This document shows, piece after piece, positions 33,401-39,400 of a DNA stretch of 64,000 nucleotides. Position 1 is the first letter of the stretch. Every line of letters begins with the position of its first letter. Position numbers and translations under genes: made by a program. Source of the stretch: Siphonodentalium dalli (Eukaryota > Mollusca > Scaphopoda > Gadilida > Siphonodentaliidae); contig CP136063.1 in assembly GCA_032622095.1 (NCBI GenBank), positions 86,467,980 through 86,531,979 of the forward strand. Reading direction: 5' to 3'. The notes beneath the pieces were generated by a model. The model worked only from the letters and a program-made list of their open reading frames with translations. It did no database searches and was not told the DNA's origin.

Positions 33401-36400
33401 AGAACCAAGCATCAAATTGTATTTTGAACTCCTTGATTGAGTTACCATCTGTTATGAGGGCAGGTACATTATAAGTCATCCTGAAATGATGAAACTGGTT
33501 CTAACCCCGATGAGCACAGATTAATGTTCCAGGCAAAGGGAGGAAGGGACTGTTCTACAGTAATGCCCTAAATAATCGACTCCTTAACCACAGCAGAATT
33601 ATGGGTAATTTTTCTGGATTTAGTCGGAAATATGGCTTGTTGCCATTCATCGCAAAGCTATCGGGGAGAGATTTCCAATGAAGGCAACAAGCCATATTTC
33701 CGACTAAATCCAGAAAAATTACCCATAATTCTGCTGTGGTTAAGGATTCGATTATTTAGGGCATTACTGTAGTGGTTGCGGTTACCACCATGTGCTGCGT
33801 GTGCATCCCCAATGAGAATATTTTTCAAAATTTAGACTAATATCACCCCTCTTAATTCAAATTGTTTGGCTTCGGCAATCCGCTACAGCAACCCTTTCCA
33901 TGGCCCAGTTTACTTCAGCTGATAACTATAGCAAATTATGAGTGCTGCTAATATGGAGGTTCTGGGGTTAATTATATGGGCTTCTGAACAACTAGTAAGA
34001 CTTAAGGGTAAGAAATAAGTCAAGAATATTTAAATTTCAGTGAGTTCTTTTTAGCACCAGTGTCAGTCCTTCCAACGAGGAAAACACAGCAAGAGCACTT
34101 ATTTGCTCTCGCAATTCAGAAGATGGGTATAATTGCGCCCGTAATATAATCGTAAGTTGGGTTTTTCTCAAACAAAATGTCATTCTAGTATAGACCTATG
34201 TCCAGTTACACTTTCACATGCCCATAATTTAACTAAGATGGGAAAGGTTCTGAATTAGTAAATATACCTTCAAATAGTTCAATATTGATTTTATGTTGAA
34301 TCAACAATTACAGTGACCATGAACATATTGACAAGAGGGACGAGTGCCAATTTTAGCACCCGTGAATTACAAATTGCGATTGCATACGGGTGCGACAGCA
34401 ATCGCTCCCGTCTCCTGGAAGGACTGCGGTGTGACAAATCTCATAATGGTGTTCACTGTGGCTCACAATTAGCATCTGTTTGCTATAAATTTGGCATATG
34501 GCCCTGACACTCAGTTTAGAGAGTGGCCAATACTAAATGGATGGAAACAATTTATTTTCTAAATCCAAGAAGGTCTGCCGCTTTGAGGAAATCAATGGAT
34601 AAAACAGTTTATTCTTTTACTCATTATGACCGCTCACTACTCCAAAGAAATTAAAAGGGCAATTACTCTGGTAACAATCAATGGACGAACCCAATAGTAA
34701 GTGAGTATCCTTTCCCCATAAACTGGGCTATCAACCTACCAAAGCACAACCAAACCGATGATCCATGCCTAAGATACAAACTGAAATTGATGTATGGACA
34801 CAAAATTTACAAGTCAAGCAAGGGCCATAACTCTGATAAAAATGAATGGAAGAAACCTGTAGTATGTGGGTATCATTTCCCATAAGCTGCCTTATAAGCA
34901 TACCAAAGTACAATAAAATCTGATGATCCATGCCTGAGTTACAAGCTGAAATGTTCAAACAGAAAACAATTTCCACTCAAAAAGGACTGTAACTTTGGGT
35001 ATCCTTCCCCCCCCCCCCCCCCCCCCCCCCCAAGCTGTGATATGACAATGCCAAAGGAAAACAAAATCTGAGTTACAAGGTGATATGTTCGTACATATGG
35101 ACGTACGGCTAGACTGAGGGACAGATGGATGGAGCCCTCAACTATATACCCAGGCCCACCTTCGGGGGTTGGGGCATAATAATGTAATGGAACCTACCGG
35201 TAGCCATTTCCAGCAATTCACTAATAAGAAAACTTACCGATATCTCTGGCCATTTCCAAGAATACACGAGTAAGGAAACTTACAGATTTCCCAGGCCATT
35301 TCCAGCAGTTAATTTTCGAACCCCCAGATCACATATATAAATTATATGCCATATTATATACCATTTGAAAGAGCAAGCTCCAAAACATTGTATTATCAAC
35401 TTATCCTATGTAATAAACTGTGAGCATGTTGTTTTTGTTGAGTTACCGACATGTTTTTGTGCTTAAGTTTCATCTGGATTTGTTGTGCAAAGTGTATTAT
35501 TTTCGATGGCGGGGGGAATAACTATATATTTTAAATATAGTGTTATTCCCCTTTTCATTGAAAATACATTTTTAGTTTGAATTCTGTTGCATTCTGGGAA
35601 CAATAACATGGGGAATGTTTTTATGATTTCAGCCATTTTCTATTTCTCTATGGCCAGTATGGGCATCTTCTGAGACACAAACATTTAATCATATTTTATG
35701 GCATAGATTGTTATTAAAACCATATATCAAGGCACTGTAAACAAAATAATCGGTGACTCGAAAATTAAGTGGGCCTTATGATTAAACCTACCAATATCCC
35801 TGGCCATTTCCATCATTTCATTAATGATTAAACCTACCAATAGCCCTGACCATTTCCATCATTTCATTAATGATTAAACCTACCAATATCCCTGGCCATT
35901 TCCATCATTTCATTAATGATTAAACCTACCAATATCCCTGGCCATTTCCATCATTTCATTAATGATTAAACCTACCAATATCCCTGGCCATTCCATCATT
36001 TCATTAATGATTAAACCTACCAATAGCCCTGGCCATTTCCAGCAGTTCATTAATGATTAAACCTACCAATAGCCCTGGCCATTTCCAGCAGTTAATTAAT
36101 GATTAAACCTACCAATAGCCCTGGCCATTTCCAGCAGTTAATTAATGATTAAACCTACCAATAGCCCTGGCCATTTCCAGCAGTTAATTAATGATTAAAC
36201 CTACCAATAGCCCTGGCCATTTCCAGCAGTTAATTAATGATTAAACCTACCAATAGCCCTGGCCATTTCCATCATTTCATTAATGATTAAACCTACCAAT
36301 ATCCATGGCCATTTCCATCATTTCATTAATGATTAAACCTACCAATATCCCTGGCCATTTCCATCATTTCATTAATGATTAAACCTACCAATATCCCTGG

Positions 36401-39400
36401 CCATTTCCATCATTTCATTAATGATTAAACCTACCAATATCCCTGGGCATTTCCAGCAATTCATTAATGATTAAACCTACCAATATCCCTGGCCATTTCC
36501 ATCATTTCATTAATGATTAAACCTACCAATAGCCCTGGCCATTTCCAGCAATTCATTAATGATTAAACCTACCAATATCCCTGGCCATTTCCATCATTTC
36601 ATTAATGATTAAACCTACCAATAGCCCTGGCCATTTCCAGCAATTCATTAATGATTAAACCTACCAATATCCCTGGCCATTTCCAGCAATTCATTAATGA
36701 TTAAACCTACCAATATCCCTGGCCATTTCCAGCAGTTCATCATAGCATTCATCAACGAGGTCTTGTCTCTCGTTATTCTTCTCCTTCCCGATATTAGCAG
36801 CAACAGCTGTCTTCTTGTTACCCTGAATGGCAAGCTCAATCTGAAAACAGTAAGTAATCAAATAATTTTAAAGATAAGGATGGCCTTCGCGATGAGTATT
36901 GCTAAAACAGTCACATCCTTTAAAACCACCATAAACAGAAAGAATATTATAATGTAGACATATTTTATTCTTATACCAATCATAAATACCACATAAATAG
37001 CATTCCTCAACCATATTCTGATTAATATCATGTATAATGTACATGTACTGGATGCACAGTGTTCTCAATACATAACACATGGATCAATGCTATGTCATTC
37101 TTGTTACTAGTGTCTTTATTTACACAGTCCATGCTCTTAAAAAGAACATATAGAAACTCAAATTATCAAGCCATTAAGCCAATATTGGAATTTTGCATTA
37201 CTCACAACCAAATCCTATATATTCTTACGGAAATTTTCATAATTTGGATACTTTTATTTTTAAATAAAAGGTCAGCAGACCACAGTGTCCCCCGAAAAAG
37301 TGGCAAGTCGATGCCGCTTTGTTGAAGAAATTAAAAACAAATGTTGAAATTTTCTAAGTTGAAAAGGGTTAATAACTCCGTAAAAAAAATTCCGTCATCT
37401 ATATACATGTTGCACATCTCCAATATGTGGGTAACAATACTTTGAAGTTTCAAATATCTACCATCAAAACTGTAGGAGGAGTTGATTACACCACGAAGGT
37501 ACCCTCATACAGAAAATTAAAAAAAATGTTGAAATTTTCTAAGTCAAAAAGGGTTAATAACTCCGTCAAAAGAAAAAGTTTCCGTCATCTATATACATGT
37601 TGCACATCTTCAATATATGGGCAACCATATTCTGAAGTTACAAATCTCTAGGATAAAAACTGTAGGAGGAGTTGATTACACCACAAAGGTACCCTCATAC
37701 AGAAAATTATAAAAAATGTTGAAATTTTCTAAGTCAAAAAGGGTTAATAACTCCGTCAAAAGATAATTTTTCCGTCATCTATATACATGTTGCACATCTT
37801 AAATATATGGGCAACCATATTCTGAAGTTACAAATCTCTAGGATGAAAACTGTAGGAGGAGTTGATTACACCACGAAGGTACCCTCATACAGAAAATTAT
37901 AAAAAATGTTGAAATTTTCTAAGTCGAAAAGGGTTAATAACTCCGTCAAAAAATAATTTTTCCGTCATCTATATACATGTTGCACATCTTCAATATATGG
38001 GCAACAATATTCTGAAGTTTCAAATCTCTGGGATGAAAACTGTAGGAGGAGTTGATTACACCACGAAGGTACCCTCATACAGAAAATTATAAAAAATGTT
38101 GAAATTTTCTAAGTCGAAAAGGGTTAATAACTCCGTCAAAAAATAATTTTTCCGTCATCTATATACATGTTGCACATCTTCAATATATGGGCAACCATAT
38201 TCTGAAGTTACAAATCTCTAGGATGAAAACTGTAGGAGGAGTTGATTACACCACGAAGGTACCCTCATACAGAAAATTATAAAAAATGTTGAAATTTTCT
38301 AAGTCGAAAAGGGTTAATAACTCCGTCAAAAAATAAATTTTCCGTCATCTATATACATGTTGCACATCTTCAATATATGGGCAACAATATTCTGAAGTTT
38401 CAAATCTCTGGGATGAAAACTGTAGGAGGAGTTGATTACACCACGAAGGTACCCTCATACAGAAAATTATAAAAAATGTTGAAATTTTCTAAGTCGAAAA
38501 GGGTTAATAACTCCGTCAAAAAATAAATTTTCCGTCATCTATATACATGTTGCACATCTTCAATATATGGGAAACCATATTCTGAAGTTACAAATCTCTA
38601 GGATGAAAACTGTAGGAGGAGTTGATTACACCACGAAGGTACCCTCATACAGAAAATTATAAAAAATGTTGAAATTTTCTAAGTCGAAAAGGGTTAATAA
38701 CTCCGTCAAAAAATAAATTTTCCGTCATCTATATACATGTTGCACATCTTCAATATATGGGCAACAATATTCTGAAGTTTCAAATCTCTGGGATGAAATC
38801 TGTAGGAGGAGATGATTACACCATGAAGGTACTCAAAAGTGTGACGGACGGACGGACGGACGGACGGACGGTACGACGGACGAACGGACGGACCCCGTTT
38901 CTATAGTCCCCCAAAAATAAATTTTTCGGGGGACAATTATACAACCAAGGCCTGTACCTTTAAATAACTCTTGGGTTATATGGTATGTATGGAGGGGGAG
39001 AGTGCCAATAGTTCAATCACTGAGGTGAATTATTCATCAATCTGTTGTGAGTTGTCCAGCCTTAACAAAGCTGGTCTTTTCTAATGAATATCTAATATAT
39101 TCAATATTTGATTTGATTGTGCTATAATTGCTTTGGTATTAGAAACAATTGTAATAATATATTTGGAAGGCTCTATTATTTAAGAAATCAACTGAAATCA
39201 ACCACTTTTGAGCCTTTTTGTACAAATTTATCTTCATTTTCCCTGCATGAAGTCTTAAGCCTCGGACCTATCCATAGCAATAATCGGGTTACTATTCAAA
39301 TTATACTATCCATAATATTCGCAGGGTTCTACTTTTAAACCACATTTTAAGAAATGTGAAAATTCAATGACTTATCAAATCTAGAGTAAACGTGTATGGT

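What the first reader, a model, noticed from the sequence alone, without database searches (positions are those of the whole stretch)
35193..36840. Minisatellite that has copied an exon-intron boundary about 24 times in the BLM gene
Seen: the 46-bp unit is the 3' end of exon 13, its 5' splice site and a few intron bases. The true exon end is simply the first unit next to unique coding sequence. Inference: the spliceosome faces about two dozen near-identical donors in a row. Use of a later donor would add a segment with an in-frame stop before HRDC, so array length could tune the amount of full-length helicase. The helicase concerned is itself a guardian against repeat instability.
Basis: partly seen in the sequence, partly recalled or inferred. 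Interest (0 to 1): 0.78.

Follow-up and report, generated by a model that had tools for sequence, protein, structure and literature searches.

The report
Splice-donor minisatellite in a BLM helicase
In an animal's DNA-repair helicase gene, the end of one exon and its splice signal have been copied head to tail, about 20 times in one copy of the gene and about 80 in the other; this is real and testable, but it resembles a known human case, and the cell most likely uses only the first signal.

Summary
On the minus strand a 46-bp unit (30 exonic nt of a BLM exon plus 16 intronic nt with donor GTAGGT) occurs 21 times in a row at about 35776-36740. Three older units lie beyond a high-copy insert, giving 24. 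The exonic part encodes the start of HRDC, so the array came from the exon. A genome search found the array at two places only.

The second place is new. The gene region recurs about 340 kb away, 0.2-5.5% diverged per 2-kb block, and there the array has 81 full units. A 100-N gap right where copy 1 stops suggests an unmerged second allele; a true duplication is not excluded. That copy's real donor is GTAAGT, its contiguous decoys GTAGGT.

Any decoy adds the same stop, inside HRDC rather than before it. Dosage tuning by array length is poorly supported: the exon has long flanking introns, and published human minigenes with two identical donors 52 nt apart used only the upstream one. Human IFI6 is a precedent. 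Best reading: a boundary-spanning minisatellite, mostly silent, with rare leakage to RNA decay. No RNA or related species could be examined.

The parts
36711..36840 (-). Exon 12 of 13 rebuilt (130 nt), encodes the linker after RQC and the start of HRDC; its last 30 nt are unit 1 of the array
   Evidence: AG acceptor and GT donor, open frame when spliced; homology to human BLM
36705..36710 (-). Real 5' splice site GTAGGT, identical to the 20 contiguous decoys in this copy; GTAAGT in the second copy
35776..36740 (-). 46-bp array, 21 contiguous units (one is 45 bp), each with a GTAGGT donor-like site
35308..35775 (.). High-copy insert (MITE-like; label recalled), ends approximate, that splits the array; an insert in the same place is present in the second gene copy
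   Evidence: stretch 35306-35400 had 38 further matches at 94-98% among the 40 matches listed (40 of 544 candidates scored); end motifs
35193..35307 (-). Three older, diverged units; donor positions GTAAGT, GTAAGT, GTAGGT here, and GTAAGT, GTAAGT, GTATGT in the second copy
32727..32918 (-). Next exon (192 nt), remainder of HRDC; its own donor is GTAAGT

Best explanation
This is a minisatellite born by tandem duplication across the 3' boundary of a BLM exon and then enlarged and homogenised in place. The exon itself is unit 1. Because the exon is short and its flanking introns are long, the splicing machinery most likely pairs the upstream acceptor with the first donor, so the correct exon is made. 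The next few decoys are probably used rarely; each such transcript carries the same early stop and is probably destroyed. Decoys further out are probably inert, and array length (21 versus 81 units) is nearly neutral. Shown: anatomy, origin from the exon, stop codons, two array lengths in this assembly. Inferred: which donor is used, RNA decay, neutrality.
For: Exonic part of the unit is conserved BLM coding sequence, so the direction is exon to array. Array found only at the two gene copies. Both copies keep 13 of 13 rebuilt exons with AG and GT at their edges and no stop; 6 of 2001 coding nt differ, 4 of them silent, against 193 of 16,596 intronic nt, which suggests both are functional whatever the array length. 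Exon 130 nt, flanking introns 2,855 and 3,792 nt (coordinates): exon-definition geometry, where the upstream of two identical donors 52 nt apart was used exclusively in human minigenes (PMC9225289, section read). A secondary description of human IFI6 says two downstream repeat units serve as donors, giving three mRNA species (PMC4526556, passage seen), that is, few of its many units.
Against: No RNA. The PMC9225289 minigenes are human and have stronger donors (CAG/guaagu); weakening both there caused exon skipping in the larger exons, and in intron-definition mode the downstream donor is favoured. The intronic part of the decoys is less variable than the exonic part: 2 of 16 positions vary against 14 of 30 in 98 decoys, Fisher p = 0.026, which a purely neutral array does not predict, though homogenisation leaves few independent events and one of the 2 is only the array's ragged end. 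All six diverged units (three per copy) still have GTA, any base of A, G or T, GT at the donor position. The second copy has a better real donor than its decoys, which hints that competition may matter.
Confidence: 0.62

Rival explanations
1. Length-tuned dosage: decoys compete with the real donor, and more units mean more decayed transcript and less full-length helicase.
For: Each decoy tested brings a stop (24 of 24). Two array lengths exist. The copy with 81 units has a unique GTAAGT real donor among GTAGGT contiguous decoys, as if compensating.
Against: Exon-definition data favour the first of identical donors (PMC9225289). Decoys past the third give exons over 300 nt, so length should saturate early. 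The predicted U1 pairing difference is only 0.3 kcal/mol (-9.1 against -8.8).
Confidence: 0.13
2. The decoy donors are kept by selection as a U1 snRNP landing strip, for example to protect a long intron from premature polyadenylation or to load U1 near the real donor.
For: No variable position among the 6 donor bases in 98 decoys, against 14 of 30 exonic positions. Donor-like sites persist in the diverged units of both copies.
Against: The p of 0.026 (exonic against intronic part) was found after seeing the data, and homogenisation makes units non-independent. Unit number differs nearly fourfold between copies. Only four AATAAA/ATTAAA motifs in the sense strand of intron 12 (no control was run for that number).
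Confidence: 0.06
3. A decoy is the main donor, so this species makes mostly BLM truncated inside HRDC.
For: Real donor in the window copy is identical to its contiguous decoys; in intron-definition mode the downstream donor is preferred (PMC9225289).
Against: Introns here are long. The HRDC exon downstream is identical over 192 nt between copies, matches known HRDC domains, and continues the protein frame from the first donor.
Confidence: 0.05
4. Assembly artefact: array length or the second gene copy is produced by the assembler.
For: A 100-N gap lies exactly where copy 1 stops, a feature of false duplications (PMC9516828, passages).
Against: The boundary array is present in both copies, on both sides of the gap, with many private unit variants (11 and 17 types, 4 shared). 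What is in doubt is whether there are two loci, not whether the array exists.
Confidence: 0.04

Closest known systems
Human IFI6 (6-16, G1P3) splice-donor minisatellite, Turri, Cuin and Porter 1995
   Same: A minisatellite that supplies multiple splice donor sites in a transcript; two downstream repeat units are said to serve as donors (title in the reference list and one passage seen in PMC4526556; the 1995 paper is not held).
   Different: There the repeat is 12 bp in about 26 copies (recalled) and alternative products are described. Here the unit is 46 bp, holds 30 nt of conserved coding sequence, a decoy gives a stop, and there are 21 or 81 contiguous units plus 3 old ones.
Intron gain by tandem duplication of an AGGT-containing segment (Rogers model; ATP2A1 and fission-yeast 24-bp repeats as described in PMC4974935, passages seen)
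   Same: Tandem duplication near a splice signal inside a gene; the unit contains AGGT.
   Different: Here the duplicated piece spans an existing boundary and its copies lie in the intron; no new intron or acceptor is apparent (by eye).
Ordinary intronic VNTR
   Same: Head-to-tail array with homogenised units and different lengths in two copies.
   Different: Its first unit is the coding end of an exon.

Membership tests
BLM-type RecQ helicase | DEAD, Helicase_C, RecQ zinc-binding, RQC and HRDC domains in order | tested here: met
   Five Pfam domains above cut-off in the 666-residue rebuilt protein; best PDB matches are human BLM, E 3.8e-203
Splice-donor minisatellite (IFI6 type) | Tandem array spanning an exon-intron boundary | tested here: met
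Splice-donor minisatellite (IFI6 type) | Units carry donor-like sites | tested here: met
   24 GTARGT sites in the copy A array region, 83 in copy B
Splice-donor minisatellite (IFI6 type) | More than one unit used as donor in RNA | not testable with these tools
   no RNA data held
Splice-donor minisatellite (IFI6 type) | Copy-number variation | tested here: inconclusive
   21 against 81 full contiguous units in two copies that are either alleles or paralogues
Intron gain by AGGT tandem duplication | Duplicated segment yields a new spliced intron | not testable with these tools
   no RNA; unit has AGGT but no obvious polypyrimidine tract (sequence, by eye)
False heterotype duplication (second copy) | Assembly gap between the two copies | tested here: met
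   100 N at C3:86639392-86639491; copy 1 matches copy 2 up to the last base before it
False heterotype duplication (second copy) | Haploid read depth, discordant read links | not testable with these tools
   no reads held

The most novel reading that the evidence does not exclude
The two copies are alleles of one BLM gene in an evolutionary tug of war: a self-copying exon boundary creates more and more competing donors, each of which would shorten a genome-stability helicase, and the long-array allele survives because its real donor is the stronger GTAAGT. Array length and donor strength would then be coupled, and BLM dose would vary among individuals.
Probability: 0.1. Interest if true: 0.75.

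Novelty: new member of a known kind. Interest (0 to 1): 0.36.

Why it matters
It is a natural competition experiment: one exon faces 20 or about 80 nearby copies of its own donor 46 nt apart. If only the first is used, it is a strong natural test of the exon-definition rule. If not, a repeat would be setting the dose of a helicase that guards repeats. Either result is directly measurable, but the principle of a minisatellite supplying splice donors is already in print.

Tried and rejected
Dispersed satellite: rejected, 24 matches all at the two gene copies. Limit: that search skips very common words and scores only its best candidates; even the query's own place is not in the list, so absence elsewhere is not proved. 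Satellite co-opted by the exon: rejected, because the exonic part aligns with the human BLM HRDC region. Alternative donor 4 nt downstream (GTAG|GTTTAA): rejected, since joined to the next exon it reads into TGA at once (worked by hand). Special targeting of donors: not supported, because at least one donor inside an array happens in 78% and at least two in 42% of random placements. Masking of decoys by RNA folding: no clear difference (probability that the donor is unpaired: real 0.036 against decoy mean 0.051 over 22 sites in copy A; 0.103 against 0.052 over 81 sites in copy B). Left end of the duplication: not found. 86300000-86320000 has only five matches over 300 bp, at 70-80% identity, in 86603001-86700000; pieces at 86639492 and 86655000 hit satellite. 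Pieces at 87000000 and 87150000 had no match over 250 bp in 86603001-86700000 by megablast. Literature: 10 counted searches of an open-licence library; no title or abstract start in the lists shown describes a BLM case of this kind (one search showed 8 of 12 papers, 10 of 65). Looked at by passages only, adding little: PMC3618361, PMC2572611 (reference list), PMC8724738 (reference list).

Rows dropped before counts: the exonic unit 1 of each copy and pieces not 46 bp long were left out of the 98 decoys (A has one 45-bp unit; B has one 73-bp piece, a full plus a 27-bp truncated unit). In one search alignments under 300 bp, positions before 2600 and blocks with fewer than 200 aligned bases were left out; it counts 7 exonic differences where searches count 6. 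In one search, two single-base runs and three short-period arrays (4, 8 and 9 bp) were not entered, and overlapping rows were merged. In one search, short hits of exon 12 (the array units) were not printed.

Full report
What is there. The window is G000:C3:86467980-86531979 of an unnamed 2.23-Gb genome in 9 contigs. On its minus strand I rebuilt 13 exons of a RecQ helicase, 2,001 coding nt, all 13 with AG before and GT after them. The protein carries DEAD, Helicase_C, RecQ zinc-binding, RQC and HRDC domains, and its best solved-structure matches are human BLM, E 3.8e-203. The ends of the gene were not rebuilt. The exon of interest is 36840-36711 (130 nt). Its last 30 nt plus 16 nt of intron form a 46-bp unit repeated 21 times in a row. 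A high-copy insert follows at about 35308-35775 (part of it has 38 further matches among the 40 listed). Beyond it are three diverged units.

Direction of copying. The exonic part of the unit encodes ...[10 protein letters not shown], which aligns in frame with the start of the human BLM HRDC region (Pfam HRDC begins at residue 590, inside this exon; 'helix 1' is recalled). It is therefore old coding sequence, and the array was made from the exon. A genome search with 281 bp of array gave 24 matches, all at this gene and one second place (the tool's lists are lower bounds).

The second copy. A 105-bp probe, the exon without its last 30 nt, has two perfect matches. The other lies about 340 kb away, and comparison shows the whole gene region duplicated there. 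Aligned parts differ by 665 of 42,886 bases, 0.21% to 5.46% per 2-kb block, plus many insertions and deletions. Corresponding points are 86364685 and 86700000, 86400000 and 86744021, and the stretch from about 86601187, which matches at 86934541. Copy 1 matches copy 2 at 98% up to the last base before a 100-N gap at 86639392-86639491; right of the gap lies satellite DNA. Gaps between copies are described as typical of false duplications made from divergent haplotypes (PMC9516828, passages). I think the copies are alleles (about 70%, a judgement), but read depth is needed; a true tandem duplication is not excluded, and I did not find where copy 2 begins.

What differs between the copies. The window copy (A) has 21 contiguous units; the second (B) has 81 full units and one truncated. 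Of 11 unit types in A and 17 in B, excluding unit 1, 4 are shared, so both arrays have kept changing. In A the real donor is TTG|GTAGGT, the same as its 20 contiguous decoys. In B the real donor is TTG|GTAAGT, while 79 contiguous decoys are TTG|GTAGGT and one is TTT|GTAGGT. Of the three old units, two have GTAAGT in both copies, so GTAAGT may be ancestral; that is inference. Predicted pairing with U1 differs little, -9.1 against -8.8 kcal/mol. A G at +4 occurs in none of the other 12 donors of the rebuilt gene (8 A, 4 T; donors listed). Coding sequence: 6 differences in 2,001 nt, two of them changing an amino acid (Q434K, F553L in the numbering of the rebuilt piece), no stops.

What decoys would do. 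Splicing from any of the 24 GTAGGT/GTAAGT sites found downstream of the real donor in intron 12 of copy A (20 contiguous units, 3 old units, and one site at +1971 outside the array) gives the same ending [13 protein letters not shown]. The stop lies 29 nt before the exon 12-13 junction for the first decoy and at least 221 nt before the end of exon 13, which has its own donor, so nonsense-mediated decay is expected (rule recalled). The truncation is inside HRDC.

Which donor is likely used. Exon 130 nt; flanking introns 2,855 nt and 3,792 nt (coordinates; 3,792). In PMC9225289 (abstract, passages, sections 6 and 8 read), human minigenes recognised by exon definition with two identical donors 52 nt apart used the upstream one exclusively, and human alternative-donor pairs of similar strength with long introns favour the upstream site. 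In intron-definition mode the downstream donor is favoured, and with both donors weakened the larger exons were skipped, so the conclusion depends on the source species behaving as humans do and on the donor being strong enough. Decoys beyond the third make exons over 300 nt, so extra units should matter little. This speaks against dosage tuning by length but does not exclude it.

Results that do not fit neutrality well. Among 98 decoys, 14 of 30 exonic positions vary and 2 of 16 intronic ones, none in the six donor bases; Fisher p = 0.026 for exonic against intronic. One of the two intronic ones is the ragged end of the array. All three old units in both copies keep a donor-like site. These tests were chosen after looking, and units are not independent, so I treat them as a hint only.

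How special. With 25 TRF arrays of this window placed at random, at least one of 13 donors falls in an array in 78% of trials and two or more in 42%. Observed: two donors (exons 6 and 12), no acceptors. In addition the 3' end of exon 11 has a single diverged copy downstream, in which the donor GT is lost. So boundary duplication is what a repeat-rich gene would be expected to show; the size of this array is what stands out.

Known precedent. Human IFI6 has a minisatellite described as providing multiple splice donor sites (Turri 1995, title in reference lists; use of two downstream repeat units described in a passage of PMC4526556). The 1995 paper itself was not held. I therefore file this as a new member of a known kind, with a longer unit, coding content and two very different lengths in one assembly.

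Noticed in passing
54539-54620 (exon 6 ends at 54700): The last 70 nt of BLM exon 6 with its donor are copied once about 150 bp downstream, 89% identical, in both gene copies; in the window the copied donor reads TAC|GTATGT.
   Followed up: partly
39224-39276 (exon 11 ends at 39696): The last 47 nt of exon 11 with 8 nt of intron have a diverged copy (87%) 466 bp downstream, also in the second gene copy (85%, further downstream); in the window the donor GT is lost there (AAG|ATAAAT).
   Followed up: partly
G000:C3:86364685-86973618: Region of about 340 kb present twice in direct order with a 100-N gap and satellite DNA between the copies; probable unmerged haplotypes.
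   Followed up: partly
37328-38832: A second array, 190-bp period, 7.9 copies, 96%, lies in the intron just upstream of exon 12.
   Followed up: no
1-2405: 18-bp satellite-like array of about 134 copies reaching the window start, with similar sequence at the matching place in the second copy.
   Followed up: no
50118-50447, minus strand: Open frame of 109 aa that looks like a DNA-binding piece of a transposase (impression from memory, not searched).
   Followed up: no
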